Part shown: positions 22,732-54,793 of the stretch, piece by piece
How the letters are laid out: every line of letters starts with the position of its first letter
How positions within the stretch are numbered: position 1 is the stretch's first letter
Assembly (NCBI GenBank): GCA_017302715.1
Contig: JAFLCD010000006.1
Location: forward strand, 1-64,000
DNA from: Deltaproteobacteria bacterium
GTDB lineage: Bacteria; Bdellovibrionota; UBA2394
Reading direction: 5' to 3'
DNA: 64,000 nt
Position numbers and translations under genes: made by a program
The notes under the pieces: generated by a model
The model's input: only the letters and a program-made list of their open reading frames with translations
What the model was told of the DNA's origin: nothing
The model's database searches: none

Positions 22732-22813
22732 AAGGCTTTTTACCTTTTCTAATAGATCTCGATAAATTTTAAACTCGTAACTGGATCATTGATCCAATAA
22801 ACTGGTGAAAGTA

Positions 22814-25585
22814 ATGGCGAAAACAGGCGCAAAAGCCAAAGAAAAAATAAAAGCAAAATCCAGCGAGCTGCGATGCCTTGTGATTGTGGAGTCTCCCACC
22901 AAGGCAAAAACCATCCGCAAATTCTTGCCCGCGAACTATCACGTTGAGGCCTGTGTGGGCCATATTCGGGACTTGCCGTCTTCGGCCAAAGAGATTCCTG
23001 AGAAGTATAAAAAAGAAAAATGGGCGAATCTCGGCATCAACGTCGACGATAATTTTACCCCTCTCTATATTATTCCTTCGGGCTAAACCAAGATCATCAA
23101 GCATCTCAAAGATCTGCTCAAAGAATCTGATGAATTGATTCTCGCAACGGACGAGGACCGTGAAGGAGAGAGTATCAGCCATCACCTTGTCGAGGTTTTG
23201 CAGCCTAAAGTGACGACTAAGCGGATGGTCTTCCACGAAATCACCAAGGAAGCTATTTCGGAAGCGCTTCAAAATTTTAGAGAAGTCGATACCAATCTTG
23301 TACGCGCTCAAGAATCGCGCCGCATTCTCGATCGACTGTATGGATATTCTCTTTCTCCGCTGCTTTGGAAAAAAATTGCTTACGGTTTAAGTGCTGGACG
23401 AGTGCAATCAGTAGCGACTCGTCTCATTGTCGAGCGCGAAGAGCAGCGCATTCGATTTAAAAAAGGAATTTACTGCGGCATCTTGGCCGATCTTAAAGCG
23501 GCCAAAGGCGATCTCGAAACGAAACTCATTCGTCTAGGCGAAAAGCGAATCGCCACCGGAAAAGATTTCGATGAACATACCGGCGCCATCGAAGAGTCGA
23601 AGAAAAAAGATATTTATTTGCTCCTCAAAAAAGAGGCGGATGATTTAGAAAAAGTTTTAGCAGGCGCAAAGTGGACGGTGAGAGAAGTAAATGAAAAACC
23701 TCTGACTCGAAAACCCGCTCCTCCTTTTATTACGTCGACACTTCAACAAGAAGCGAACCGAAAGTTGGGATTAAGTGCTCGCGATGCAATGCGAGTGGCG
23801 CAAGGTCTCTACGAAAAAGGTTTCATCACCTATATGCGTACCGATTCGGTGAATCTTTCGTCCGAAGCTTTAAGTGCGGCGCGAAGACAAATCGAAAGTT
23901 TGTATGGCAAAGATCATTTGAGCGATGGCCCCAGACAATTCGCTTCAAAATCTAAAGGAGCTCAGGAAGCTCATGAGGCGATTCGACCTGCGGGAACCGT
24001 TTGTCCCACTCCGCAAGAAACCGGCTTAAGTGGACTTGAATTTTCACTCTACGATTTGATCTGGAAGCGAACCGTCGCTACTCAAATGGCCGACGCCAAA
24101 CTTCTCAATCTCTCTATTAATATAGACGCCCAAAATCCTTCGGCTCCCGAGAGACATAAACACGCCGAGTTTCAAGCCACCGGCACTCGGATTATTTTTC
24201 CAGGCTTTTTGCGTGCCTACGTCGAAGGCCAGGATGATGCCGAAGCCGCTCTCGAAGAGCGCGAAGTTTTATTGCCCGAAGTCAAAGCCGGCGAAGCTTT
24301 GAAACTTCAAAAATCCGAAGTCACCGAGCACGAAACCAAACCACCTGCACGATTTACAGAAGCGAGTTTAGTTCAGACTTTAGAAAAAGAGGGTGTCGGT
24401 CGACCTTCCACTTACGCTTCGATTATTTCAACGATTATCGATCGCGGCTATGTGCGCCGACTTGCGAATGCATTGGTTCCGACCTTCACCGCTTTTGCAG
24501 TCGTGAATTTACTTAAAAAACATTTTTCAGAATTGGTGGATCTTAAATTCACAGCCTCGATGGAAGAAACTCTGGATGAAATTGCTGAAGGTAAGAAACC
24601 TTATCTAGAATTTTTAAAAGATTTTTATTCGGACAAAAAGAACGGACTTCGTTCTCAAATCGAAACTCGTGAAAAGAAAATCGACCCTGATGAATCTCGC
24701 GCGATTGCAATCGAGACTTTTCCAGATGTTGAATTTCGCATTGGAAGATTCGGTCCTTATCTTGCGCAAAAACAAGCGGGCTCGGATGAATCCATTCGCG
24801 CTTCGATTCCCGAGGACATTGCTCCTGCGGATTTAGAATTGAAGACGATCGACAAACTCATCCAAATGAAAAAAGACGGGCCTCCGCATTTAGGCGTTGA
24901 TCCTGTGAGTGGAAAAAAAGTTTACGCAATGACGGGTCGCTATGGTCCCTATCTACAACTTGGCGAAGCTGAAGATGCTGATGCCGCGAAGGCCGCTCCA
25001 AAACCAAAGAAAAAGAAATCCAAAAAAGTAGTGGATGCTCAAAAAATTGATCCAGAGACTGGAGAAGTTTTAGAAGCAGCTGCTGAAGTTCCTGAAGAAA
25101 AACCAATTCCAAAAGTAAAACGCTCGGTGGTGCCTAAGGGTGTGGATCCTTCGCAGCTGAGTTTGACCGATGCACTTGGTTATTTGAATTTGCCTCGAGT
25201 GCTCGGCACCGACAAAGAGGGACATAAAGTTTCGGCAGGACTTGGAAGATTTGGTCCTTATATTGTCAAATCTGGTGCGGGCTTAGAAAAACCTGAATAT
25301 CGATCGCTCAAAAAAGAAGACGATGTTTTGTATGTAAACTTCGATCGTGCGATTGAAATTTTTGCTGAGCCCCGGACGCGCGGAACTCGCGGTCGCTCGA
25401 AGGCAGTTGCGCTTAGAGTGGTCGGCCAACATCCGATTGAAAAAAAACCTATCGAAATTTTCAACGGACCCTACGGTCTCTATGTGAAATGTGCCAAAAT
25501 CAATGCTTCGATTCCCAAAGAAATTCAGCCGGACGATTTGAGTCTCGAAAAAGCCATTGAACTTATCGAAGCTCGCAGAAGATAA
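22814..25585 (+). CDS. topA: DNA topoisomerase I, interrupted by an in-frame TAA after residue 90
   Basis: About 923 residues if read through. The enzyme relaxes negative supercoils. The TOPRIM domain starts with [17 protein letters not shown] and continues after the stop with [11 protein letters not shown]. The catalytic tyrosine is in FITYMRTDS (about residue 340). The C-terminus has four zinc-free repeat units ([36 protein letters not shown]) separated by a Lys-rich linker near 735-785. The codon at 23084-23086 is TAA, in the same frame, between IIPSG and TKIIKHLK. It splits the TOPRIM domain and separates its catalytic Glu from DxDxE, so a restart downstream could not give an active enzyme. 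Sequencing error, a true mutation or read-through are all possible. Confidence 0.9.
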
Positions 25586-25842: not shown

Positions 25843-25915
25843 GTAATGCGTTATTGATACATTTTGAGAGGGTTTCTGAGGTTAAAAACAGGTTATTAAT
25901 TAGGAGATGATGAAC

Positions 25916-26851
25916 ATGAAATCAAAACGAATTTTAGGATTAACAATTCAAGCGGTCGCAGTCTTCGGACTCGTATCGACTTCAGCTTTTGCTCAAAAAA
26001 CACTTGAGCGACCAGCGGCTGAAAAAGGCCGAATAGAAGAATTAAGACGAGAACTTAAAGAACGTGGAATCGAAGGTGAAAGAGCTCGCGAATTAGAGCG
26101 ACAATTCACTGAGCGACATGGAAATTCTGCAGAAACTTCAAAAGCAGAAGTTGGAGCTTTCTTAAAAGAAATGAATGCCAATGGTCCTCGATCTGGATCA
26201 AATGGTCCTACTAGAATTGAATCTCAAATGCCTGGTCAATACAAAGCCGGAAGTCCAGCTCCTATGGGAATTGGTGGAATCGGTGGTTTAGGTCTTGCTG
26301 CTGCAAAAGGCGGAGCTTGTGAAATCACAAGTGGCGGAACAACGAATGCATCTGTGGTTGCTGATATCGCAACAGCTCGCAGAATCGCTGGATCCACTGC
26401 AGAAGTTGTAGATCAACAACAAGCTCGATTAGCCGATATGCGTGAGTTTGCTAAACTCGATCAAACTGCCTTTGATGCTCTTTCGACTGCTGAGCGATCA
26501 GCTCTTGAAACTCGCTATGAAGCAGATTTAACTGTTAAAAAAGGTGAAGCTTTTGCTGCCGCTGATGCTGTTGTTCTCGCTGCTAAAAATGCGGGCTTAG
26601 AATTCAGCACTGAAGGCGCACAAAAAACGATCAACAGCTGGGGAACAGATTCAGCAGTTCTCTCAGGTGTTAAAATGATTTACGCTCGCGTAGTCGAATA
26701 CTTAAAATCTCAAGTAGGCAAAGGTGCAGTTAAACTCGAAAGCGTTATTGCTGATATTAGAAAGTTTTTAGTAAGTACTGGTAGAGTTTCTGAGAAAGAA
26801 GCCAATGAATTCGGAGCAAACTGCGCTCCTTCGCTTCTTGGTCTTCGATAA
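25916..26851 (+). CDS. Secreted protein under a sigma-54 promoter, function unknown
   Basis: 311 residues. ATG 25916 is chosen of three nearby ATGs because AGGAG (25902-25906) is nine bases upstream and it directly precedes the signal peptide (MKSKRILGL...VSTSAFAQ, cleavage after AFA). The mature protein begins with a charged coiled-coil region (RIEELRRELKERGIEGERA), then a Gly-rich stretch (MGIGGIGGLGLAAAKGG), then a helical Ala-rich domain. Two cysteines (GGACEI; GANCAPS) flank that domain and could bond. No family is known to me. It has a strong ribosome site, a perfect sigma-54 promoter and a strong terminator, so it is a single-gene unit likely made in quantity under a specific condition. 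Confidence 0.85.
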   Translation: MKSKRILGLTIQAVAVFGLVSTSAFAQKTLERPAAEKGRIEELRRELKERGIEGERARELERQFTERHGNSAETSKAEVGAFLKEMNANGPRSGSNGPTRIESQMPGQYKAGSPAPMGIGGIGGLGLAAAKGGACEITSGGTTNASVVADIATARRIAGSTAEVVDQQQARLADMREFAKLDQTAFDALSTAERSALETRYEADLTVKKGEAFAAADAVVLAAKNAGLEFSTEGAQKTINSWGTDSAVLSGVKMIYARVVEYLKSQVGKGAVKLESVIADIRKFLVSTGRVSEKEANEFGANCAPSLLGLR

Positions 26852-26890
26852 GATTTAGATTTACGATCTCTCAAAAAGATCATCATCTCA

Positions 26891-26923
26891 AAAGCCGCTT
26901 AGTGAAAACTAAGCGGCTTTTTT
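26891..26923 (+). terminator. Strong intrinsic terminator
   Basis: AAAGCCGCTTAG (26891-26902) pairs perfectly with CTAAGCGGCTTT (26909-26920) around a six-base loop and is followed by a run of T. It closes the sigma-54 unit and separates it from the giant gene. Confidence 0.93.
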
Positions 26924-27025: not shown

Positions 27026-30000
27026 ATGGGTGGAGCTAGTTTAAGGCTTAAACTTTATCTTTTTTCATGCGCGCTTATGCTCATCATGTCATTGCCTTCG
27101 CTGCTTTTAGCTGAATCACCACCTTATTGTTCCTCTGAAATTTTGAATCTCAAGCCCCTTCCTGCAAAGCAAGCAGCCGATATGCAAGAGCTTCTCAATC
27201 ACGCCTCTCAAGCTATGCCCAATCAAGATCCTGTTCTTGAACAGATTCAAAAACGCGAAAAGGACGAAGCAAAACAAAATGAAGCGAAAGAAAAAGAATT
27301 AAAACTTTATCAAAGCGAAAAAGAAGATCTCGAAAAATTCATCGAGAGTAAGAAAGAAGATCTGGCTTATTCACTTTATTACGGAGCCGGCATCGATGAT
27401 CAAATTCGCGCGATGCAAAATCAATCTTTTGAATATTTATCAGATCCTAAAAATGGACCTATCGATTGGCAATCGTATCGCGAGCGTTTTATCTCAGACG
27501 AAGAACTCAACAAGCGAGATTGGAAGGGGGCGGATGCCTATCCGTTAAAACAAGTGACGGGTTTTGATAAGCCTGTTCCTGCAGGTACGCCGCTTCACCT
27601 CGGATTGAATTATGCGACTACGGTAGATGTTCCTCAGATTTATTCTCGTCGTGAAGATCAAATTAAACATCTTTTAGCAGAAAAATTATTGAGTCCGTAT
27701 TCTAAAGAACTCACCGTTCGTGCAGGTGAAATCATTTCTCTTTATTCACTCGATGAGTTGATCCAATTATCTTTTATCAAAGATTATATAAGTGATTTTG
27801 ATATTGCTAAAAATAATATTGATTCAGTAGATGCTAAAGGAAAAATTGAGCGTCTTTCGGCCGCTGAGATTGACGCCAAAGCTCGAGAAGTCTTTGAATT
27901 TGAATCGAAGCTCGCTAATGCCTTTGATGAATTTCCTTTGATTTTCTTTCGCGACTGGAAAGATTTTCAGAATCAAAAGCCAAAAATTTTAGAAGCGATC
28001 AGCCATATTCAACGTCTTGCACCTGGAATTTCATTTGAAAATTTAGGTTGGACAAAGAATCAAGATTGCTCACAAGCCTTTGCATTTCCGGGCAACGAAG
28101 TAAAAGCGGTGAGCTTAAAAGATTATCGTGCGATCAAAAGACATTCCAAAAAAATGAAAGTTCAAGATCGTTTGAAAGCCAAAGATTCTCAAGAAGTCTT
28201 AAGGCAACTTCAAAATCTTGATGAATGTCTAACCAAGCGTTCAGACAAACTTAAGGAAGAACTTTCTATTGATCACTCGTGGACCTTACCGCAACTTACG
28301 GCCTTAGAATTTTTGTATAAACGTTACGGATGGGATGAAGCTTTCTTCGTGGTAAACGGTCAACCGATGACACTGGGAGATTTTAGAGCGATCTTAAATT
28401 CAAAAGATCCTCTGTATCTTAAAATGACAGCTCAATTCTTGTCTTCGGCTCAGCAGATGGCGGGGAGAGAAGGTCTCGTCTTAACGATTTACGGTAAAGA
28501 TTGGCAAAAATATTTTGCTCCAAGCGCCAATGGGGAGCGACCGAATTCTCATGCCGTGACCGAAGCTGCCGCTCAAGCTGAAGAAGTGATTGAAGCTCTC
28601 ACTTCGTATCAACTCTGGGCTCGACAAAATTTTGATTACTTATCTTTACAAACCGGAGTTGCCCAAGCACCTCAGCGGCTTAAATGGGTGCGTGATGAAT
28701 TTCAAAAACGATTAGGCAGTGTTCTGACAAAAAACAATGTACCTCGTGAACGTTGGGATAAGCTTCGTGAACAAGCAGCCGAGATGCAGCTGGAATCTTT
28801 AATTAGCGAGTTTCCAATTTTAGAGAGTACTTATTTTTATGATCCAGCGGATAAGCCCAATTCTTTTATTGGCCGAGTTTATGCTCAATACCAAGAGCAA
28901 ACCAAAGCACCTCTCCAAGATTACGAAATGATGTTTGGCCGGAATGGCAAAGATCGCGACACTCAAAAGTCTACAGCTCTTTCAATGGAAGCTGCTAATC
29001 GCGATGCCGGTAATATCTATCGATCAGGCTTAATGAGAGATGGAGCTTTTCTACAAAACTTTTTTAATCCTGTAGATAAAGAAGGCTTACATTCCTTTTT
29101 CGTCGGTGAAAAAGCTCCAGCTCGTTTGGAGAAGCGTCCCGAAGAATTTAATCGAATGCTTGTGGATTTAGGTTTGCGCCAGCGAGGTTTGATTAACGAA
29201 TACGGCATTCGAGCGATGGAGATGACTGGCATTACTTGGACGCCTGATTTCTTAAAGTTTTTAAACCGAGAGGGTTTTGAAGACGTTCGAAATGATTATC
29301 AAAATTTTTCTAAAGCTCTTTTTGAGATGGGACAAAGTTTGGTTGAAGATTTTGAGTCGACGAAGCCAGGCCTTAAGCGCGAAGATTTTAAAAAGCTTAT
29401 TCATCTTTATTTAGAAAATCCAAAAATCGACGATAAAACTTTTGCAGATATCCTAAGAACTCCTTCTGACGTAAAAAACGGAGGATTGATCGAAAGATTA
29501 CTAACCAATCCGATGATCTCGATCAAAGAAGCTGACGCTAAAGATATTCTGTCTCGCGCACATATGGAAGAATTTTGGCCCGAAGACAATAAAGAATTAA
29601 GAGCAAGAGTTTTAGATCAATTGGCGAGATTGCGAGTTTTTCTTTTAGCGACTCACTCGATTATGGGTAGCGAAATATCGGCAGGTACAGCTCTCAATGA
29701 TCAAGCTGCCTTTATGCAGGGTTCGTCTCTCAACCAAGAAATTTTTAATACGGCAGGTAAACCTACGATTTTAGATCAGCAACTCTGGATCGAAGATAGA
29801 CTTGAGAAAATGTGGAAAAGCATGGGAGTTCTCTCTTACAGCGAGTTCGATCCCTTTGCTGTTGCCGCTGCTTTTGCAAAAGAACAAAGCAGTTCTCTGA
29901 AAGATTCTTTTACGCCATTTTTTAAGTCTTTGGGTGAATTGATAGAGACTCAATTGAGTTATGAATCTGCACAAAGTGAAGAAAAAATTGAAAAGTTAAA

Positions 30001-33000
30001 ATCTGATTTACCTAAAAATTTGCAAGAAGATCCCGCGGTTTTGGGTCTCCTCCATTTTCTGAATGATAAATCTCATTTTACAAAACTTTCAGAAGCTCAA
30101 ATTTATGATTTAAAAAATACTTTTAAAGAGCAAAAAGCCATCACCTTGACCAATCGACTCAATGCTTTAAAAGGCTTTTTCTCCTCTGGTATGTCGGGCA
30201 AAACTCAATTGAATGCCCAAGAGGTAACTCAATTTTTAGCTACTCACCCAGGTTTTTCGTTCACAGAGTTTTTAAAGCGAGCGCGAGCGGTTGCCGAAGC
30301 TTCTCTAGACAATCCCCTAAGAGGAGTTGGTATTGGGTTTAGTTCGCCCGTTCAGTTTTCTGAACGTGATGCCGCTAGGGGGCACTTCTTAAAATTATTT
30401 CCTGAAGGAATGCGTGAAATTCCAGCAGTGAAGCAAATGATTTCTTCGGTTTTGGATGCAGATTATCAAAAGATTAAATCCGGTATCGCCTCTCAGCAAA
30501 CAACGAATCAGAAAAATATCTTAGATGAGGCTTTTAAAGACGCGAAAGGTGAGTCTGAAGCTCTTAACCGACGCAAGATTTTTACAGTAGAATTAAATCA
30601 ACAAGCTCTCATTGCAGATCGCCTGGCAGAGCTTGAAAGAATTTCTGATTATGTTTTAGGTCGAAAGCTAGGTTGGGACAGAGCTAAGTTATCTAAAGAA
30701 ATTTTAGATCTTCAGGCTGAAGGTAAATTTGATTTTGATAATTTTTCAAAGCAGCTCGCCGTCGCATTTGAATACCAGGCCGAAAGACAAATCGAAGGCA
30801 CGTACTTTTTTGAAAATGCTGAAGCGATTAAGGCTCAAATAAAACCTCATCTAGATAATTTACTGAGCAACTTGCCTGAAGAATTCAAATCTGAAGACTC
30901 TGCGTTGAAAAAGCTTCTTGAGGATTTATCTAATGACGAGCTTTGGAAAATCCAGCCAGAATCTTATCTAGGAATTCGATTGAGTAATTTAGGTTTTGCT
31001 TTAACCGGCGCTCCTCATTTGCCAAAAAATTTAATCGACGGTGATGCCTGGGTTTCAAAATTTAAAAATTATCCTGAATTGGCCAAGATTTTTCTAAAAG
31101 ATTTAGGCCGCATCTTTTCACTTCAGCTTAAGTTAAATAAGTCTTCTGATGAGGGTGAAATCACAAAAGTAAAATCTGAATTAGATAGTTTGAGAAAATC
31201 TGTTTTAGCCAATCTGCCCGAAAAAATTAGTGCTGATTCAGATATTCAAAAATTGGTAGAGAGCATAGCGCTCCCAGGAGCTTTGAAAGATTATAAGGAG
31301 CCTGAAGGCCTTAATCCTTTTCAGCAGACTTTGCTGAGCGTTTTTGAAAATACTCCCGCAGCGCGGAAGGCAGAATTCGACAAAAATAGAAACAAGATGG
31401 CGACAGATTTAGTTTCGAGTTTAATTTCAAGCGATCGAGGAACCTGGTTTCAAAATAATACGCATATCATTGCACCATTTTCGAATTCTTCGGATATTTC
31501 GGCTTTTCATTCTAAATTTTTATTAAATCCTTCTAATCCTCTCGCCAAAGGGGATCCTCTTCTCTTGCAGGAAGAAGTGATACTTTCAGATTTATACGGA
31601 TCAGAATTTAAAATGGTTTTAGAAAGTTTTGGTCCAGAATATGAGGCCCAACTTCGCCGTCAAGCTCGTGAAATTGGAGCCGCTATTTTAGACATTGAAA
31701 ATCGCTTAAGTTCTAAGGTTCAGTCTGGTGGGCTTACTCGCGAAGATTTAAAGAAAATCTTCGAATCTCAACTTAAAATTGAAAAGAAAAACAATCAATC
31801 CAGAGAAAATATTTTAAATAATACGACTGATTTTGATGTGAACAAATTGATGGCTGCCTTTGCAAAACAAAGACAAGCTAACCCTCTTTTTGAAAACCAA
31901 GAATTAACACCTCAAATTATTTCTGAATTATTATCTCAGTCTGGTGTTAAGGGTATTTCGCAAAATTCACCTGAGCTACTTTCATTGATGAAATCCTTTC
32001 AGAAGGCCGTAAGCCTCTCTCATGCTCTTATTGAAATGAGATCGCAGGCTGCGAATGTGATTCAAAGCAATTATGAGAATCGTCGCGCTGAGCAAATAGT
32101 TGGCCTCACTCAGTCTTTGAGAGCTTTTAGCAAAACATCCGAGAGAGAGAATTTAAATCCAAAGGATATGCTCAAAAAACTTCAGGATTGGTCGAATGAA
32201 AAATCCAAGGGCATTCAAGAGACTAGAAAACTTACTCATCTTCAGATGGAGCGATCGAAATTAGGTTTAGGTGGATTGCCTTTGTGGGATCAGGCCATTC
32301 GCGGAACGGGATTCTTTTTGAAATCAGGCGCTCAAGGGGCTTGGGGTATGACCAGTGGTGCGGGTATTGATGTGGCTCGATTTGTTTATAATTCAGGAGA
32401 AGCTGGTCGGCTGATTCGACTTTCTTGGACAGCAACAGATGAAGAATTTGTTCGAGGTATTTCTCAAATGGGGGATCTTGAAGAAGATCCAGTCACCGGA
32501 AAATTGGGAAATGATTTTAGACAAACTTTGAGTGGATTCAATCGCCATCTGATGTCGGATGAGTCTGCGTTTGCAACGCACTGGGCTTGGTATATTGGAT
32601 CGGCGGCTATCATTGGCAAAGCAGGTGCAATGGCTCGATTGAGATCTTTGGGACTTACAGAAACGACGACATCCAAATGGGTTGCAGGCGGAATGAAGGA
32701 GCGATCTCTTCCCGGAGCCGGATACCTAAGCAAGTTTAAAAAGCCAAAAGTAGAAATCGCCGCTCAAGCTGGAATCAAATCTATCCAAGAAACAAATCAG
32801 ATTTTGGGAAGGGGAGCGAAAAGTCTTCTCGCCTCTGGAAAAGATTTGAGCCTTTTAAAATCTACTTTAGTGGGAATGAAAAACTTTGCTCTTCCTCGAG
32901 GCGGTGAATTTGGAAAATTATTAATCGATAGTGGTTTGTTTACTGTTTTAACCACGGCAAACAAGGCGTATTTCACTCCTAAAGATATTGGAATGGATCC

Positions 33001-35800
33001 CAATAACAAATTGAAATTTTTTGGTACTGGTCAGTTTTGGCTCGGCACTTTGCCTCAAGAGTTTGCGGCGAATATCGGATTTTTCTTGGCCATGCGCTAT
33101 CAATCTCTCGGCTTAAGATTTGTAGAAATGGGAATGCCTAATTTAGCTTTTCTCAATCACTACATAGGTAAAGGTATGTCGTTTCATATCTATTCGATGA
33201 TGGGCAAAGGCTTTACTCATATGGGCATTTATAAAATGACAGCCGATCCTGTCGATCGAAAATATGATCCAAAAACTCATGAGTGGATTTATCCAAATGA
33301 AATCGAAGCTCAAAAAGGCCAAGAACTCGACGCTGTTACTCAAGAATTTTGGAATCAAGCAGGAATGGGAGGCATTATGTTATTTACGCACAACGCTCAC
33401 CATTTTCCAGAGATGGGAAGGGCCATTCGGCAAGGGGTGTTTGGAGCCGCGCCTTCTAGAACGGGAACGACTCTCGGTAATATGTGGAATTATATTTATC
33501 GTCGTCCTGATGCTTACTCAGAGCAAACAATTCAAATCGCTGCTCGAGATTTAGCGCTTAAATTTCCACGAACTGCCAATGATGTTAAAGGAGATCCCGT
33601 CGAGGCCTACCGAGTTTTTATGACAACTCCTGACAAAACGGGGATGTCATTGCTCGAAAAAAATATTCGAAATGCACTGCACGGTATAGGTGGTCAAGTA
33701 AATCCGTCCAAGACTGAGGTGGATCGTGCCATCGCTAAATTCAACACCAATTTTGAAATCGGAGTTCGCGCAGCTCGCGATATGCAATTAAAAGATAGTG
33801 CGCTTGAGGTTCAAGCAGCGCTGGATGTAAGAAATCTTTTTAAATTAAAAGATCCCGAAGCTTTTGTGGGCGAAGTGAAGAGACGAGAAGGTCGCTTCCA
33901 AGAAATCATGAAAGATCGCGAGCGTCTTGGTTTGCCTTATCGAAAAGAATTAGAACCCTCGATTCAAAATACTTCTCTCAACAGTTGGACGAAGCTTATT
34001 CAAGAGATCGGCTTCGATCCAGTTTACTTTAAACACGAAGGTAGCAAAGCCCGAGCTGAACTTTTTGCTCAAAGAAATCTCTCTGCATTAAATATTCAAA
34101 CTCAAGCTTTAAAAGGTCCTCGTGACGAAATTGGAGCTCGCGGCGAAATCAAATCACCTGATGGAAAAACCATCGCTTATGAAAACCGATGGTTCTCAGC
34201 AGGCGATCCAAAAAAATATAAAGCTGGCGATCAAATGGCTCGCGATAGCATGGAGCTGAACGGAACAAATTATGAGCTTCGCTATTATAGTGCTCTGTCT
34301 ACTCCCAAAGTATTTCAAGACGGAAGTATTGTATTCAACGGCCAAAAGGGCGAGTCGCTGATGATTACTCCTGACAAAAAAGTTTTGTTTAAAGGAGTCG
34401 GAAATCAAGAAGTGCTTTCTTTTGATTCTCTCGATGCCGCTCGAAATGTTTTTGCAAGATTAGATGTTCAGCTCTTCGATGGTCAAAATTTAGTGACGCC
34501 TCTGGTTTCAGTGCAAACGGGATCACCTGTTCCTGTTTATTTATTTGATCGCGCGATGAAAAAGCCTGTTCAAGTTTCTGAATTCAAACCTCTCACCGCT
34601 CGAATTTCAGAGCGTGCATGGATCGTCGACGAGAATGTTTCTTCTAATCCGCTCTTAAGAAGTCATCTTTTGCAATCCGTGCGAGGCGAGATCATCGGCA
34701 ATCAAGCGGGAATGCGATATCCCGTTACTCTTCCTTCTCAAGTGTTTACTCGCCGCTACGCCATGTCTGAAAAAGATGGAGCAGAGCCCGTTGTTTACGA
34801 AACAACTTTTAGAAACAGTATTCGCATCGATATTAAAAAAGGTGAAAAAACTTATACGCTTCGACTTCCAGCGATGAATGCAGAGAAGCCTTATCAAATC
34901 GATATCGAAAAAAATCTTATTTATATCGAAGGTCCCGCCAATCTTTTCTTGAAGATTGATTTAGCTTCAGAAAAATTTGAAATGATCGATAGAGTTTCTG
35001 GCCAAGTTCGCGTCGTTGGCAATTTGAGCCTTTGGGAAAAAGTCGCTGAGCGATTCACCGTAGGTGGGGCGAACGCGACAGAGCTTTCGTCTGAAGATCT
35101 TTTCCGTCAACTTCTCTCGGTTCGTTATAAGGGAATGCCCGAAGCTGTGGCTGCCCGTCAGCAATGGTCGGATAATTATTTTGAAGTCGATCTTAAAGCC
35201 GATGCTTTCAAAATTTACAGAACCGAAAATGGCAAGCGCGTCGATCTTCTGGATGGGCCTTTAGATGTTTGGGAAAAATTCTCAACTGAAGTGGCAAAAA
35301 GTGATCGCGTTTATGTTTCGGATTTACCTCTGCACGATCTTATTCCTCGCTATATCAAATTTGCGAAGGGATTTTCGGGCGTAGAACGAATGAAATATAT
35401 CGAGATGGAAAAAGCTGGGACTTTGCCTGAGCAAACCTATCTTCCTGAGATGATAGAAAAGGCTCAAAATCAAGAGTTGGCAGCCGGAGAGCAAGTATTA
35501 GCCGCTCGAGGATTTAAAAAAGAAGCCAACGGAGATTTCATAAATTCTCGATGGCAGGGATCGGACAATTATAAATTTGAGTTTAATTTAGAGCGCGATT
35601 ATTTTGAAATTTCAAAGAAAGACGGAGATTCTTATAAATCTGTCACCAGCGGAAAGCTCTCGGAATGGGATGCTTTTGAAAGAGAAAAAAGTGTCGTGAT
35701 GACCGAGCAAGGACCTGCCAGAATTGATCTCTCTGCTTTAGCTCCAGATCTATTGGTATATGACTTTAAAGAATTTCAGGAAAAATCTGGCCTGCGTTAA
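27026..35800 (+). CDS. Giant secreted protein (about 2,924 residues), unknown function
   Basis: The open frame begins at TTG 26978. The start is placed at ATG 27026, which directly precedes a signal-like segment (LKLYLFSCALMLIMSLPSLLLAES), but no clear ribosome site is seen for either. The first 1,750 residues are helical and charged with many Lys/Glu-rich stretches. Residues about 1,770-2,120 are less charged, with Gly- and Ala-rich hydrophobic segments (AWYIGSAAIIGKAGAMA, LGTLPQEFAANIGFFLAM). The last 800 residues are beta-rich, with repeated units ending in SLWEKVAERF, DVWEKFSTEV and SEWDAFEREK. No domain is recognised. The size suggests a surface or released protein; a predation or adhesion role would be only a guess. 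The deacetylase gene follows after 39 bases. Confidence 0.88.
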   Translation: MGGASLRLKLYLFSCALMLIMSLPSLLLAESPPYCSSEILNLKPLPAKQAADMQELLNHASQAMPNQDPVLEQIQKREKDEAKQNEAKEKELKLYQSEKEDLEKFIESKKEDLAYSLYYGAGIDDQIRAMQNQSFEYLSDPKNGPIDWQSYRERFISDEELNKRDWKGADAYPLKQVTGFDKPVPAGTPLHLGLNYATTVDVPQIYSRREDQIKHLLAEKLLSPYSKELTVRAGEIISLYSLDELIQLSFIKDYISDFDIAKNNIDSVDAKGKIERLSAAEIDAKAREVFEFESKLANAFDEFPLIFFRDWKDFQNQKPKILEAISHIQRLAPGISFENLGWTKNQDCSQAFAFPGNEVKAVSLKDYRAIKRHSKKMKVQDRLKAKDSQEVLRQLQNLDECLTKRSDKLKEELSIDHSWTLPQLTALEFLYKRYGWDEAFFVVNGQPMTLGDFRAILNSKDPLYLKMTAQFLSSAQQMAGREGLVLTIYGKDWQKYFAPSANGERPNSHAVTEAAAQAEEVIEALTSYQLWARQNFDYLSLQTGVAQAPQRLKWVRDEFQKRLGSVLTKNNVPRERWDKLREQAAEMQLESLISEFPILESTYFYDPADKPNSFIGRVYAQYQEQTKAPLQDYEMMFGRNGKDRDTQKSTALSMEAANRDAGNIYRSGLMRDGAFLQNFFNPVDKEGLHSFFVGEKAPARLEKRPEEFNRMLVDLGLRQRGLINEYGIRAMEMTGITWTPDFLKFLNREGFEDVRNDYQNFSKALFEMGQSLVEDFESTKPGLKREDFKKLIHLYLENPKIDDKTFADILRTPSDVKNGGLIERLLTNPMISIKEADAKDILSRAHMEEFWPEDNKELRARVLDQLARLRVFLLATHSIMGSEISAGTALNDQAAFMQGSSLNQEIFNTAGKPTILDQQLWIEDRLEKMWKSMGVLSYSEFDPFAVAAAFAKEQSSSLKDSFTPFFKSLGELIETQLSYESAQSEEKIEKLKSDLPKNLQEDPAVLGLLHFLNDKSHFTKLSEAQIYDLKNTFKEQKAITLTNRLNALKGFFSSGMSGKTQLNAQEVTQFLATHPGFSFTEFLKRARAVAEASLDNPLRGVGIGFSSPVQFSERDAARGHFLKLFPEGMREIPAVKQMISSVLDADYQKIKSGIASQQTTNQKNILDEAFKDAKGESEALNRRKIFTVELNQQALIADRLAELERISDYVLGRKLGWDRAKLSKEILDLQAEGKFDFDNFSKQLAVAFEYQAERQIEGTYFFENAEAIKAQIKPHLDNLLSNLPEEFKSEDSALKKLLEDLSNDELWKIQPESYLGIRLSNLGFALTGAPHLPKNLIDGDAWVSKFKNYPELAKIFLKDLGRIFSLQLKLNKSSDEGEITKVKSELDSLRKSVLANLPEKISADSDIQKLVESIALPGALKDYKEPEGLNPFQQTLLSVFENTPAARKAEFDKNRNKMATDLVSSLISSDRGTWFQNNTHIIAPFSNSSDISAFHSKFLLNPSNPLAKGDPLLLQEEVILSDLYGSEFKMVLESFGPEYEAQLRRQAREIGAAILDIENRLSSKVQSGGLTREDLKKIFESQLKIEKKNNQSRENILNNTTDFDVNKLMAAFAKQRQANPLFENQELTPQIISELLSQSGVKGISQNSPELLSLMKSFQKAVSLSHALIEMRSQAANVIQSNYENRRAEQIVGLTQSLRAFSKTSERENLNPKDMLKKLQDWSNEKSKGIQETRKLTHLQMERSKLGLGGLPLWDQAIRGTGFFLKSGAQGAWGMTSGAGIDVARFVYNSGEAGRLIRLSWTATDEEFVRGISQMGDLEEDPVTGKLGNDFRQTLSGFNRHLMSDESAFATHWAWYIGSAAIIGKAGAMARLRSLGLTETTTSKWVAGGMKERSLPGAGYLSKFKKPKVEIAAQAGIKSIQETNQILGRGAKSLLASGKDLSLLKSTLVGMKNFALPRGGEFGKLLIDSGLFTVLTTANKAYFTPKDIGMDPNNKLKFFGTGQFWLGTLPQEFAANIGFFLAMRYQSLGLRFVEMGMPNLAFLNHYIGKGMSFHIYSMMGKGFTHMGIYKMTADPVDRKYDPKTHEWIYPNEIEAQKGQELDAVTQEFWNQAGMGGIMLFTHNAHHFPEMGRAIRQGVFGAAPSRTGTTLGNMWNYIYRRPDAYSEQTIQIAARDLALKFPRTANDVKGDPVEAYRVFMTTPDKTGMSLLEKNIRNALHGIGGQVNPSKTEVDRAIAKFNTNFEIGVRAARDMQLKDSALEVQAALDVRNLFKLKDPEAFVGEVKRREGRFQEIMKDRERLGLPYRKELEPSIQNTSLNSWTKLIQEIGFDPVYFKHEGSKARAELFAQRNLSALNIQTQALKGPRDEIGARGEIKSPDGKTIAYENRWFSAGDPKKYKAGDQMARDSMELNGTNYELRYYSALSTPKVFQDGSIVFNGQKGESLMITPDKKVLFKGVGNQEVLSFDSLDAARNVFARLDVQLFDGQNLVTPLVSVQTGSPVPVYLFDRAMKKPVQVSEFKPLTARISERAWIVDENVSSNPLLRSHLLQSVRGEIIGNQAGMRYPVTLPSQVFTRRYAMSEKDGAEPVVYETTFRNSIRIDIKKGEKTYTLRLPAMNAEKPYQIDIEKNLIYIEGPANLFLKIDLASEKFEMIDRVSGQVRVVGNLSLWEKVAERFTVGGANATELSSEDLFRQLLSVRYKGMPEAVAARQQWSDNYFEVDLKADAFKIYRTENGKRVDLLDGPLDVWEKFSTEVAKSDRVYVSDLPLHDLIPRYIKFAKGFSGVERMKYIEMEKAGTLPEQTYLPEMIEKAQNQELAAGEQVLAARGFKKEANGDFINSRWQGSDNYKFEFNLERDYFEISKKDGDSYKSVTSGKLSEWDAFEREKSVVMTEQGPARIDLSALAPDLLVYDFKEFQEKSGLR

Positions 35801-35839: not shown

Positions 35840-36691
35840 ATGCCTTTGAAAGTTCGAATTAAAATTATCGCCATCGTTTTATTCAGCGCGCTCGGTTTGT
35901 TTGTGATTTTAAATTTTTCTCCCTGGCTTGCATTGGCGGCGGCACTGATCGGAATTTTTTATCTCGAGATGATTTATCCCAAGTTGAATTTTTTTTCGCC
36001 TGCGATTTTGAATGTCAAAGATCAGGGTGAAAGAGCAGTCGCCATTACTTTTGATGATGGTCCAAGTGAATGGACTTTAAAAATTTTAGATCATCTTCGC
36101 GATCAAAATGTAAAATCCACTTTCTTTTTTCTTGGAAAAAATTTGGAGCGCTATCCCGAGATTGCGAAGCGAGCTCATGCCGAAGGGCATACGATCGGAA
36201 TCCACGGTTACTCTCACACAAAATTCCATTTTAAAGGCGCAGATTTTATTCACGAAGATTTGGATCGTTGTTTTAAATCTTTTCAATCTCTTGGAATCAA
36301 ACCCGCCGCTCTCATTCGTTTTCCTCACGGATTTAAAAATTTTTTTGCCGTTCGAGACGCTCGACGAAGAGGTCTCACGATTTGCAGTTGGGGCAAAGGG
36401 GTTTGGGATTCAAAGCGCCCCGGTGTTCAAACGATTGTCGATCGCTCGCTTAAACTAAAAGCTGGCGAGATCTTACTTCTTCACGACGGCGATGGCGCCA
36501 AAGAAAATCCAGATCGCTCCCAAACCGTAGAAGCCTTACCCGAAATCATTCGTGGCCTGAAAGCTAAGGGGTTTGAGTTTGTAACGCTTGATGAACGTCA
36601 TTCTAGGTGGAAAAAGGCTGTTAAAGCGGTTGGAGTTTCAAGCAAAGAAATTTTAGAGGAATGTAAGCCTTTTAATCCGATTAAAAAATAA
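35840..36691 (+). CDS. Polysaccharide deacetylase (NodB domain), membrane anchored
   Basis: 283 residues. An N-terminal double hydrophobic stretch (residues 8-47) anchors it. The NodB domain carries all motifs of carbohydrate esterase family 4: motif 1 TFDDGP, motif 2 with the metal ligands in HGYSHTKFH, motif 3 RFPHG and motif 5 LLLHDGDG. It should remove acetyl groups from a cell-envelope sugar polymer (peptidoglycan GlcNAc, chitin-like or capsule); the substrate cannot be told from sequence. In Bdellovibrio relatives such enzymes act on peptidoglycan, but that is family knowledge. The gene converges with the membrane protein at 36714. Confidence 0.93.
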   Translation: MPLKVRIKIIAIVLFSALGLFVILNFSPWLALAAALIGIFYLEMIYPKLNFFSPAILNVKDQGERAVAITFDDGPSEWTLKILDHLRDQNVKSTFFFLGKNLERYPEIAKRAHAEGHTIGIHGYSHTKFHFKGADFIHEDLDRCFKSFQSLGIKPAALIRFPHGFKNFFAVRDARRRGLTICSWGKGVWDSKRPGVQTIVDRSLKLKAGEILLLHDGDGAKENPDRSQTVEALPEIIRGLKAKGFEFVTLDERHSRWKKAVKAVGVSSKEILEECKPFNPIKK

Positions 36692-36713
36692 AATTAAAGA
36701 ATGAATATTTAAC

Positions 36714-37859
36714 CTAAATCGAAGGCGGTGCATTCGCGACTTTTTCACGAGTGGATGAGCCAGAAGAATTTGCATGTGAAAAAGGAATCGTCGTCAGTTC
36801 GCTAGAAATAGCAGAAGACTGCATTCGATAATCATCAAATGAAATCACATCTGTTTCACCTGTCGCTACTTTGGCTTTGATCGTTTTTACTTTGCGGTGC
36901 TCAGTCTGAACAAAATGAAAATGATAACCGTAGGCGCCGATTAATAGAGTCGGAATCAATTGCACCATATGATAAAGGATCGCAATCGATGCAGCCGAAA
37001 CTCGCGGCACTCCTAAAAAGCTGAGCATCGTAATCGCGCCCAATTCAAAAGTTCCGATATGACCTGGGCTCGAAGGAATGGAAATCGCCAAAGTCACAGC
37101 TGCCACCACCATAAAAGCTTTGAAAAGCGAAATAGGTTCGCCAAGAGCTGAGGCAAAAGCGACGACGATCAAAGCTTCAATGAACCAACCTAAAAAACTA
37201 ATAGGCACCGTAGGCAATAAAACTTTCCACTTAGACAGAGGCGAGGCACCCTCAAAAATTTTTGCGCGAGTTTGCAAAACAACATTCAGCCATCTCCATT
37301 TCGACTGCTTAGGTAACTGAGTGAGCAAAACAAAGAGCGCGATAAAAAGTGCGGTCGCGGCCATGATCGTTTTGGTGGGGGGGAGAGTTCCCCGCATTCC
37401 TAAAACTACCGCAGAGATATAGAGCAAAACACAGAGTGTAATAAAATCTAAAAAGCGATCGGCTCCCATCGCACCGACGGCGCGCGCTGCAGAAATTTTG
37501 GTTGTGCGATTGATGTAAAAAACTCGAAAAGGTTCGCCCAGTCGAGCGGGAAGACTTGCATTAAAGAAAAAAGAAATTCTCAAACTCCAAAATGCATTCC
37601 AATAGCGAAGTTTTCCGAGGGGCTTTAAAAGAAAATACCATCGGCCGGCGAGTAAAAAATTATGGCAGTTCACTAAAATGAGCGCGCCGAGTAGCGCCCA
37701 AAAATTCATTGAACTAATTTCGCGCCCGATCTCCATCCAATTTAATTTTCGAAACGCAAAAAAGAGACATGCTAAGCTGACGCAAGCCCCCAGAAAAAAA
37801 ATCAAAGGTCGAGCCTTTGATTCAAAAATTTTTGGAATTTTACTTATTCTCTTTTTCAT
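36714..37859 (-). CDS. Flippase-like / LPG-synthase-type membrane protein (UPF0104)
   Basis: 381 residues. It has about eight transmembrane helices and the family features of the LPG_synthase_TM (AglD/UPF0104) group: FLLAGRWYFLL, FFFNASLPARLGEPFRVFYI, GADRFLDFITL and the later IPSSPGHIGTFELGAI. These proteins lack the soluble lysyl-transfer domain of MprF and are usually next to glycosyltransferases, thought to act on lipid-linked sugars or lipids. The tail of about 70 residues is polar and cytoplasmic. Its neighbour 28 bases upstream is a GT4 enzyme, so the two are probably one transcript acting on an envelope glycolipid. Confidence 0.87.
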   Translation of the reverse strand: MKKRISKIPKIFESKARPLIFFLGACVSLACLFFAFRKLNWMEIGREISSMNFWALLGALILVNCHNFLLAGRWYFLLKPLGKLRYWNAFWSLRISFFFNASLPARLGEPFRVFYINRTTKISAARAVGAMGADRFLDFITLCVLLYISAVVLGMRGTLPPTKTIMAATALFIALFVLLTQLPKQSKWRWLNVVLQTRAKIFEGASPLSKWKVLLPTVPISFLGWFIEALIVVAFASALGEPISLFKAFMVVAAVTLAISIPSSPGHIGTFELGAITMLSFLGVPRVSAASIAILYHMVQLIPTLLIGAYGYHFHFVQTEHRKVKTIKAKVATGETDVISFDDYRMQSSAISSELTTIPFSHANSSGSSTREKVANAPPSI

Positions 37860-37887
37860 TTCTTTTGAAGATCTCTGCGAAAATTTA

Positions 37888-39267
37888 CTATAAAACTTTT
37901 ATTTTTTTCTCTTCTTCAAGTCTTCCTAAAACTCGATTCGTATACTCATCTACTCGGGCGATAATATGCGTCCAAGAATAAAATTTTTCCATTTTTATAA
38001 GAGCTCGTTTGGCAATAACGGCGCCTAAACCAGGTTCTTTAATTAAACGCAAAATCTGCGCTGCAAATTCTTCGGGCTTATCGGGATGTGCCATGAGCAC
38101 TTCTTTTCCAGCTTCCGCCGTCTCATGATATGCGGGAATATCGCTCGCCACCGTTGGTTTATTCGACGCCATACTTTCAAGTAAAGTCACTCCGAGTGCG
38201 GCTACGCGAGTGGTTGGGCAAACATTGATATCAGCCGTCGCAAAATACTGAGGCTTTTCTTCTAAGATCGGGCCAATGAAATGAATATGAGTTTTGAGTT
38301 CCTCTTCCATCGACTCTTCGTAAAAAGCTTTGAGCGGACCAGCACCCGCCAAAATCAAGCGAGTGTTTGGAGCTTCGCGATGCACGATTCTAAATGCATC
38401 GATCAAAACCGAGATGCCATTGCGAGGTTCCATTCTACCGATAAAAAATAAATTTGTTTTTCCGTCATCAAACTTAGGTATGCGTGGAATGTTTTGGTTG
38501 AATTCATCCATGGGCACGCCGTTTGGGATCACTTCAAACTCGCACTTAAACCATTCCGAAAAAGGTTTCGCGCAAGTTTTTGAAACCGCGATGTTGCCTT
38601 CAAAGTCATTCATGAATCTCGATAGATGTTTTTCAAAGAGTCGGTAATAAATCGGTTTCGATTTAAGCAAAGTGTGAACGTGTCCCACCGTCGGACAATC
38701 CGCGTAGCGCTGAACAATCAGAGGCAAAATCGGAGTGAGTGGGCAGTGAATATGAATGACATCAAACTTTTGTTCGGCGATCATTTTTTTTACTTGGCTG
38801 CCAAGGTTCCATGCAAAACTTACTTTAGCCAAACTTCCATTCGCGATAATCGGAATCGATTTTCCAACTCTAATGATTTCAAATCCAAGCGGGGAGTGAT
38901 GAATATTGTGAGGCTCTGCGACGTTTGAAGTAATCAGTTTAACGTCGTATCCCAATTTCGTGAATTCAACGGCCGCAAAGTGAACGTCTCCGCTTAAGCC
39001 CCCGAGATGCGGATAATAATATTCGCTGACGATTCCGACTTTAAGCGGACGTGATTTATCGATGGGACGAAAATTTTTTCGTTTCGGATCTTTGCCAACC
39101 TTCCACATCGTGTTGATGCTTAGAGTCCACATGATGTAGAGAGTGACGGCTGCGTTATAAAAACTTACGAAAAAATGCCAGATCGCATAGCCGACGCGTG
39201 CTCGAAAAGAGAGAGGGGCTAAAGGCCTCACAGTCAGTGATTCAGAAGGTTTAGTTTTGGACGTCAA
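37888..39267 (-). CDS. GT4-type glycosyltransferase
   Basis: 459 residues. The conserved part begins near residue 77 with KVGIVSEYYYPHLGGLSGDVH and has the GT-B fold of family 4: VIPNGVPMDEF, NLFFIGRMEPRNGISVLIDAF, and the C-terminal nucleotide-sugar site LLESMASNKPTVASDIPAYHE. Enzymes like phosphatidylinositol mannosyltransferase share this layout; donor and acceptor are unknown. An unusual N-terminal extension contains a hydrophobic segment (AIWHFFVSFYNAAVTLYIMW), which would tie the enzyme to the inner membrane next to the UPF0104 protein. It is the first gene of a two-gene unit. Confidence 0.92.
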   Translation of the reverse strand: MTSKTKPSESLTVRPLAPLSFRARVGYAIWHFFVSFYNAAVTLYIMWTLSINTMWKVGKDPKRKNFRPIDKSRPLKVGIVSEYYYPHLGGLSGDVHFAAVEFTKLGYDVKLITSNVAEPHNIHHSPLGFEIIRVGKSIPIIANGSLAKVSFAWNLGSQVKKMIAEQKFDVIHIHCPLTPILPLIVQRYADCPTVGHVHTLLKSKPIYYRLFEKHLSRFMNDFEGNIAVSKTCAKPFSEWFKCEFEVIPNGVPMDEFNQNIPRIPKFDDGKTNLFFIGRMEPRNGISVLIDAFRIVHREAPNTRLILAGAGPLKAFYEESMEEELKTHIHFIGPILEEKPQYFATADINVCPTTRVAALGVTLLESMASNKPTVASDIPAYHETAEAGKEVLMAHPDKPEEFAAQILRLIKEPGLGAVIAKRALIKMEKFYSWTHIIARVDEYTNRVLGRLEEEKKIKVL

Positions 39268-39380: not shown

Positions 39381-40208
39381 ATGGCAGAGCTTGCAAATAA
39401 GTTATCGAATTCATTGGAGGAAAAACTTCTTTCGGCCGCCTTTTTTTGCCGCCGGGATTTCTTTAAACTTTGGAATCAAATTCGGAATTCGGAAGACACT
39501 TATCTTACCCCCGAAGAGAAGTGTCAGCTCATTTTCGAAAAGCTCGAAGGGCTTTCGCCTATTCATTTGCAGCCTCCCATCCGGTTTATTTCGATGCTTT
39601 CTGCCGAGTATCCTCAAATTTTGCTCGAATTACCTCAACCACCCCTCGGACTTTTTATTTTGGGATCTATTGGAGCTGGCCCCTTTGTTGGAATCGTGGG
39701 CTCTCGAAAGCCCACTCCGTATTCTCAGCGAGTCACTCGAGATGTCGCCCGCATTTGGTCGTCGCAAGGTTTATGCATCGTCAGCGGTGGAGCTTATGGA
39801 ATCGACAGCATTGCTCACCAGACGACCCTTGAAAATAACGGAAAAACCATCGCGGTTCTGGGCGGGGGGCTTCGCCGCCTTTATCCAAAAACCCATATCC
39901 GAATCTTCGAAGAAATTCTTAAAAAAGGCGGAGCTTTAGTAAGTGAATATCCTCCCGAAACCGATGTGAGACCTTATTTTTTTCCGGAGCGAAATCGAAT
40001 TATCGCGGCACTCAGTGATTCTCTTTTTTTGGCTCAGGCGCACGAAAAAAGTGGCTCGCTATTAACCGCTCGAGCCGCTCTCGATATGGGTCGCGAAATT
40101 TTTGTTCTAAGACCTATTCAAGGAGATGTTTTATATGCGGGCTCTCAGTCACTTATCGAAGCTGGCGCCCATTGCTTGATCGATGCAAAAGAATTGCATC
40201 AGCGTTGA
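39381..40208 (+). CDS. dprA: DNA-processing protein DprA/Smf
   Basis: 275 residues. DprA loads RecA on incoming single-stranded DNA in natural transformation. The Rossmann-like core shows VGIVGSRKPTPYSQRV, IVSGGAYGIDSIAH, TIAVLGGGLRRLYP, SEYPPETDVRPYFFPERNRIIAAL and KSGSLLTARAALDMGREIF. The C-terminal winged helix found in many homologues is absent, since the protein ends 35 residues after that last motif. It is a single gene divergent from the glycosyltransferase and convergent with the secreted protein at 40221. Confidence 0.95.
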   Translation: MAELANKLSNSLEEKLLSAAFFCRRDFFKLWNQIRNSEDTYLTPEEKCQLIFEKLEGLSPIHLQPPIRFISMLSAEYPQILLELPQPPLGLFILGSIGAGPFVGIVGSRKPTPYSQRVTRDVARIWSSQGLCIVSGGAYGIDSIAHQTTLENNGKTIAVLGGGLRRLYPKTHIRIFEEILKKGGALVSEYPPETDVRPYFFPERNRIIAALSDSLFLAQAHEKSGSLLTARAALDMGREIFVLRPIQGDVLYAGSQSLIEAGAHCLIDAKELHQR

Positions 40209-53431: not shown

Positions 53432-54793
53432 TTAAGAATTTCTACATTCAGGCGCTAATTTTGGAAGAATTTTAAGATCCAAAATTTCTTTTGCAGAATC
53501 TATAGAACTTCTTTTCTTTGCGTTAGGTGCTTTGGCTTTCTCAGCCATTCGAGCTTCATAAACCGACATCATGGTTCTTAAAGTTTCTGGCTCAGAAGGT
53601 ATTGCGATATATTGAGCTTCTTCAAAATCTTTTAGCGTCATCGCAACAGGTGAAGCTTTTTCAGCGGTTGTTCCATTTCGATAAACAATCACGATACTAT
53701 TTGTACTCGCTAAAACAGGCGAAACATTTGTCGCACTGAGAGTGATGTGGTCAGAATTCTCTCCTCTTTGAAAAGCTAAAGTTTTTCCGCCGCCTTCTTT
53801 AGGAAATCCATTTAGTGTCATGGATCGACTAGCGAGCAGCCTTTTGAAATCTTCCACTTCGGGGCTTGGTTTCAGTACGTAGGTTGGAGTGATTACTATT
53901 TTATTTTGATCAATTCGTTCAATCGTATCTTTAAGTTCGGCGATATTATCATCACTTAAATTTTCGGTTTCTAAAATTTCAACTAATTGCTTTCTTAAGC
54001 CGGCAAAGTCATATTGCTTTCGCAATTCTTCTTCCGTAAAAATTTTAACGACATCTTTTCCATTTTGTCTTACGTAGCGAGCAATATTGATTTTCAAAAC
54101 ATCATAGTTTTTGCCATCTACCATTTCGGTTGCAATAGCAGGTATGAAAATTCTTCCTGTAAAAGTTCGGCCTCTCAAAAACGTATCCAAATATTCTTTA
54201 TCGATCGGTAATTTGAATTCTCTATCCATCGTATAATTTTCAGAAAAGCGTTTGGTGTATTCATCGGTAGAAGTTTTATAAAATTCTTCGAGTTCTTTTC
54301 CAAATTCGTCGCTTCTCTGTTTGGCTTGAGCGGCGTTCATCACGACGTGGATGGTGGGAAAATTAGGGTCAACTTTAGGTATTTCTTTTTGACCGCGTTT
54401 GCCTGAATCATAAATAGAATAAATAAAATGTGCTCGGTCATAAGCGGTTCCGTTTTCAAAATTGAGCTCTAAGCCTTTATTTTTTTTCACCCATGAATCG
54501 AGCGATTCTAAAAGCGCGGGTGTAAGTTGTGTGCTCATTTTATCGGCCATCGCAGTACCTTGGTCGACTGTTGCAGCAGCACCCGCCGCTTTGATCTTTG
54601 AAACAAATTGTTTGTAAGTATTGATTGGTCCTTGGTTGGCTTCTAAATCTCGTGTCGCAGGATCTAAATAGTATCTTCGACCTTTTTCAATGTCGCCGAA
54701 GCGATTGATCGTTGAAACTTCGCCATTGTTTTGAGCGAAGGTCATTTGAATGGCCAAAAGTCCTGTTAAGCTTACAAAATATTTTAAGTTCAT
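53432..54793 (-). CDS. Secreted protein of unknown function
   Basis: 453 residues. AAGGGAG precedes the ATG, and the signal peptide is plain (FVSLTGLLAIQMTFA, cleavage before QNNG). The mature protein is a mix of helices and strands without recognised family. Near residues 340-385 a stretch of hydrophobic beta type (HITLSATNVSPVLAS, IVIVYRNGTTA) may form a domain. The last Cys is in the final residues (PECRNS). It is a single gene; the divergent space before rsmD holds the 31-bp inverted repeat. Confidence 0.78.
   Translation of the reverse strand: MNLKYFVSLTGLLAIQMTFAQNNGEVSTINRFGDIEKGRRYYLDPATRDLEANQGPINTYKQFVSKIKAAGAAATVDQGTAMADKMSTQLTPALLESLDSWVKKNKGLELNFENGTAYDRAHFIYSIYDSGKRGQKEIPKVDPNFPTIHVVMNAAQAKQRSDEFGKELEEFYKTSTDEYTKRFSENYTMDREFKLPIDKEYLDTFLRGRTFTGRIFIPAIATEMVDGKNYDVLKINIARYVRQNGKDVVKIFTEEELRKQYDFAGLRKQLVEILETENLSDDNIAELKDTIERIDQNKIVITPTYVLKPSPEVEDFKRLLASRSMTLNGFPKEGGGKTLAFQRGENSDHITLSATNVSPVLASTNSIVIVYRNGTTAEKASPVAMTLKDFEEAQYIAIPSEPETLRTMMSVYEARMAEKAKAPNAKKRSSIDSAKEILDLKILPKLAPECRNS

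What the first reader, a model, noticed from the sequence alone, without database searches (positions are those of the whole stretch)
27026..35800. Giant exported protein of about 2,924 residues
The protein has a signal-like start, a long charged helical first part, a hydrophobic Gly/Ala-rich middle and a beta-rich end. No domain can be named. Such a product is costly and stands near genes for envelope sugars, so it is a candidate for a new surface or predation factor.
Basis: partly seen in the sequence, partly recalled or inferred. Interest (0 to 1): 0.7.

Follow-up and report, generated by a model that had tools for sequence, protein, structure and literature searches.

The report
Class-restricted giant exported helical protein
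This is a real, very large exported protein of a kind no database names; very divergent versions of it occur in four of the five sampled genera of one uncultured bacterial class, mostly at the same place in the chromosome, but nothing ties it to predation.

Summary
In detail: one intact ORF, 27026-35800 (+), 2,924 aa, native codon usage (RSCU r 0.93), with a signal peptide. Pfam, NCBIfam, PHROGs, PADLOC and PDB sequences give no credible match. It is not a singleton. The class has five held genomes (one family, five genera); four carry a homologue (3,693 aa; at least 3,215 and 1,604 aa, both cut by contig ends), and no other genome of 291 sampled from the phylum convincingly does. In G000, G001 and G003 it lies downstream of topA, after a small exported gene; the G003 copy has a lipobox. 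The protein diverges fast (18-24% local identity where TopA has 67-71%). Anatomy: helical and non-repetitive to about residue 2360, with a Gly-rich stretch 1801-2200; then a beta-rich tail with three copies of a 40-residue motif found only here. Best reading: a class-specific, Sec-exported, probably outer-membrane-associated structural or contact protein. A predation role is untested and unsupported. AlphaFold models were too poor for fold comparison.

The parts
27026..35800 (+). giant exported protein, 2,924 aa
27026..27112 (+). signal peptide, residues 1-29 (cleavage LLLA|ES inferred by eye)
   Evidence: hydropathy peak; sequence
27569..28051 (+). conserved core 1, residues 182-342, aligned to G004 865-1014 (E 5e-11) and G003 480-711 (E 2.5e-9)
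   Evidence: shuffle control
28169..31789 (+). conserved helical region, residues 382-1588, aligned to G004 1115-2287 (E 7e-24); 410-764 to G001 1029-1405 (E 4e-9)
32426..33625 (+). Gly-rich (10-12%) helical stretch, residues 1801-2200, no TM segment; Gly-rich stretches at a matching place in G003 and G004
33593..33820 (+). weakly conserved stretch, residues 2190-2265, to G004 2896-2965 (E 0.008)
34313..35797 (+). beta-rich C-terminal part, residues about 2430-2924
   Evidence: low pLDDT
34913..35080 (+). copy 1 of a ~40-residue strand/helix motif (xxDLxxxxFxIxxxxGxxxxVxxGxLxxWEKF)
35147..35320 (+). copy 2 of the motif
35540..35716 (+). copy 3 of the motif
26890..26921 (+). perfect intrinsic terminator between the small exported gene and the giant (14-bp stem, GAAA loop, run of T)
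   Evidence: sequence
25907..26851 (+). small exported protein, 314 aa, in the slot between topA and the giant; positional counterparts in G001 (300 aa) and G003 (356 aa), not alignable
22796..25585 (+). topA, the conserved upstream neighbour (has an in-frame TAA)
35840..39267 (.). polysaccharide deacetylase (+), LPG_synthase_TM protein (-), GT4 glycosyltransferase (-): absent between giant and dprA in G003
39381..40208 (+). dprA, which in G003 follows the giant directly

Best explanation
A class-specific giant envelope protein. It is exported by Sec and cleaved (by signal peptidase I here, as a lipoprotein in G003), and probably stays with the outer membrane, on its inner or outer side. The 2,300-residue non-repetitive helical part would form an elongated stalk or scaffold, and the beta-rich repeat tail, specific to this species, would be the contact end. 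Shown: the gene, the signal peptide-like start, homology in four genera, the shared slot after topA in three, fast divergence. Inferred: localisation beyond the inner membrane, elongated shape, contact function.
For: Signal-like N-termini in all three copies whose start is held: G000, G001, G003 with lipobox LSLVLLAC|SS. No internal TM segment above threshold in G000. Homology significant after composition correction: E 6e-12 (G004), 7e-7 (G003), 1.5e-6 (G001) against best values of 0.04, 0.001, 0.02 in 200 shuffles; collinear blocks. Present in 4 of 5 genomes of the class, including all 3 that are at least 90% complete; not convincingly in any other of 291 genomes of the phylum. Same slot after topA in G000, G001, G003. 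Local identity 18-24% against 67-71% for TopA: fast change, as is common for exposed proteins (general knowledge).
Against: No anchor is visible in this genome's own copy: no lipobox, no known barrel or surface-sorting domain. AlphaFold models have mean pLDDT 45 and 33, so no fold or shape is shown. Fast divergence can also mean weak constraint. The contact-end idea rests on a tail that the homologues do not share.
Confidence: 0.5

Rival explanations
1. A soluble or lipid-anchored periplasmic scaffold that never reaches the surface, for example organising the cell wall or bridging the two membranes in this class.
For: Signal peptide without a known outer-membrane export domain; lipoprotein signal in G003; kept in nearly all genomes of the class, like a core component.
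Against: Divergence to 18-24% is far above that of TopA; no known bridge or peptidoglycan-binding family is hit by Pfam.
Confidence: 0.3
2. A very large secreted toxin or effector: helical carrier, Gly-rich helical segment as a membrane-insertion part, species-specific C-terminal payload or binding tail.
For: Layout of variable tail after a conserved body; Gly-rich stretch at matching places in three genera.
Against: No hit to any toxin, translocation or immunity family; no TM-like hydrophobic segment in this copy; single copy in a vertically inherited slot rather than on a mobile element.
Confidence: 0.12
3. A predation factor.
For: Only the guess that the phylum is one that includes predators; not verified here.
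Against: Not found in any other family among 291 genomes of the phylum; no neighbour known for predation; lifestyle of the class unknown.
Confidence: 0.06

Closest known systems
Giant1-5 surface proteins of Apilactobacillus kunkeei (PMC12863079)
   Same: Lineage-restricted exported proteins of thousands of residues, long helical regions in Giant1-3, studied as positional homologues.
   Different: Lactic acid bacterium; N-terminal beta-solenoid in Giant1-4, internal repeats, five genes in a row. Here no repeats in the body and a single gene. No sequence relation tested or claimed.
Large adhesins of Gram-negative bacteria (RTX/BapA type, two-partner and trimeric autotransporters)
   Same: Very large exported single-gene proteins (general knowledge).
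   Different: Those are mostly beta-rich and repetitive with recognisable Pfam domains; here none, and no tandem repeats.
Giant homologues in PCXB01000064.1 (CG11_big_fil_rev_8_21_14_0_20_45_16) and REDG01000059.1 (DLM2.Bin98)
   Same: True homologues: collinear core, Gly-rich stretch at a matching place.
   Different: 18-24% local identity; longer N-terminal parts; the DLM2.Bin98 copy is a lipoprotein; tail not shared.

Membership tests
any Pfam, NCBIfam, PHROGs or PADLOC family | profile match above the curated cut-off | tested here: not met
   best Pfam 14.8 bits against a cut-off of 27
RTX or repeat-rich T1SS adhesin | tandem repeats with recognisable domains; no N-terminal Sec signal | tested here: not met
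   no tandem repeat in the gene, no such Pfam hit, N-terminal signal peptide present
autotransporter (type V) | C-terminal beta-barrel domain | tested here: not met
   no Pfam barrel; C-terminus ends KEFQEKSGLR
outer-membrane lipoprotein | lipobox with Cys at the cleavage site | tested here: not met
   not in this copy (LLLA|ES); met in the G003 homologue (LLAC|SS)
the giant family described here (class-specific) | significant, collinear sequence similarity over the core | tested here: met
the giant family described here (class-specific) | position downstream of topA and a small exported gene | tested here: met
   G000, G001, G003; G004 has an HNH-like gene after topA and its giant fills a separate contig, so its position is unknown; G002 contig ends 316 bases after topA
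predation factor | needed for killing or entering prey | not testable with these tools
   no culture or expression data

The most novel reading that the evidence does not exclude
A new type of giant, mainly alpha-helical outer-envelope protein that is a defining single-copy feature of a whole bacterial class, with an interchangeable species-specific tail that meets other cells.
Probability: 0.2. Interest if true: 0.65.

Novelty: new variant of a known kind. Interest (0 to 1): 0.42.

Why it matters
It defines a protein family with no named relative, kept in most sampled genera of a class although it changes far faster than its neighbour TopA, and takes up about 0.4% of the genome. If it is on the surface, it is a first handle on how an uncultured class meets its surroundings.

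Tried and rejected
Family libraries and PDB sequence search, single and profile: nothing credible. Weak Pfam hits (CoaE 14.8 bits, GMT-wHTH 14.3 bits) are below cut-off and partial: rejected. Viral contigs and plasmids: none. Three weak profile hits outside the class (E 0.004-0.009, over 41-114 model positions, frames of 230-638 aa) were treated as chance, likewise three for the Gly-rich profile. The AAA protein beside the G003 giant: its matches elsewhere are frames of 612-663 aa that cover only the AAA part and look like FtsH, so it is not a conserved partner. Large lipoprotein near topA in G038: beta-repeat protein, no match to the giants. Fold search not run because both models are of low confidence. 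E-values of members found with profiles A1-A3 and A6, which were built from them, are circular and not used as evidence.

Full report
Observation. The window is G000:C16:1-64000 of a 2.39-Mb draft genome, 96% complete. The ORF at 27026-35800 (+) is intact and codes for 2,924 residues. Its codon use matches that of 19 neighbouring genes (r 0.93) and no competing ORF in the stretch exceeds 96 aa. There is no other copy in the genome. A perfect terminator at 26890-26921 separates it from the small exported gene upstream, so it probably starts its own transcript; the deacetylase gene begins 39 bases after its stop, so those two could be transcribed together.

Anatomy. Residues 1-29 form a signal peptide; it is the only hydropathy peak above 1.2. 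Up to about residue 2360 the modelled parts are helical, but mean pLDDT is 45 and 33, so only secondary structure is taken from the models. Residues 1801-2200 hold 10-12% Gly, against 2.5-8% elsewhere, with negative mean hydropathy; the G003 and G004 homologues show a similar rise at 2400-2800. From about 2430 the models show strands. The tail has three copies of a ~40-residue motif: copies 2 and 3 align better than any of 2,000 shuffles, copy 1 with either reaches p of about 0.007. The motif was found nowhere else in 59 genomes, own genome included.

Relatives. No family library or PDB sequence gives a credible match. A whole-genome search found giant frames in G004 and G003. G001 was recognised from its neighbourhood: a long exported frame after topA and the small exported gene; pairwise comparison confirmed it. 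A named-genome scan gives G004 as PCXB01000064.1 and G003 as REDG01000059.1. With composition correction the pairwise E-values to G004, G003 and G001 are 6e-12, 7e-7 and 1.5e-6, against best values of 0.04, 0.001 and 0.02 from 200 locally shuffled versions of the query; blocks are collinear. The Gly-rich region is only weakly alignable (z 3-4) and the tail not at all. The class holds five genomes, one family, five genera; four have the giant; the fifth (76% complete) has a contig that ends 316 bases after topA. No other genome of 291 in the phylum has it at a convincing level.

Neighbourhood. G000 and G003 share hsp70 - dnaJ/TPR - xerC - trmFO - topA - small exported gene - giant - dprA (hsp70, xerC and trmFO of G003 read from the start of the translations). 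G003 adds a gene for an AAA protein with a signal-like start before the giant. G000 adds three genes between giant and dprA: polysaccharide deacetylase, LPG_synthase_TM and GT4. G001 has topA - small exported gene - giant to the contig end. In G004 an HNH-like gene follows topA and the giant fills a whole 9,647-base contig, so its position is unknown. The small exported proteins in the same slot are not alignable with each other.

How it probably works. Export by Sec is supported by three signal-like N-termini. One genus uses a lipobox, with Ser after the Cys, which by the usual rule (general knowledge) sends the protein to the outer membrane. Together with fast divergence this favours an outer-envelope protein with a long helical body. 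That the tail makes contact is inference. A periplasmic scaffold is the main rival. A toxin-like reading is possible but has no supporting domain.

Novelty. Giant, lineage-restricted exported proteins are a known kind (for example PMC12863079; and the review of giant bacterial genes cited there). This one is a new family within that kind, distinguished by a non-repetitive helical body and by its distribution over a class.

Noticed in passing
window 23087-23089: topA (22796-25585) has one in-frame TAA after about 90 codons, while relatives have an uninterrupted gene; for an essential gene this may be an assembly error.
   Followed up: partly
L005:13603-16000 continuing to L006:2078: In G003 an 825-aa protein with a signal-like start and an AAA ATPase domain lies between the small exported gene and the giant; an exported AAA protein would be odd.
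   Followed up: partly
window 25907-26851: The slot between topA and the giant holds an exported ~300-aa protein in three genera, with no alignable similarity among them.
   Followed up: partly
window 4317-6773: 818-aa protein with signal-like start, helical look and a hydrophobic Gly/Ala-containing middle, no family hit: similar general layout to the giant, smaller.
   Followed up: no
window 61200-63794: 864-aa exported protein with a possible C-terminal membrane anchor, no family hit.
   Followed up: no
window 54193-54239: Short imperfect 24-base tandem repeat inside the 453-aa ORF without family hit.
   Followed up: no
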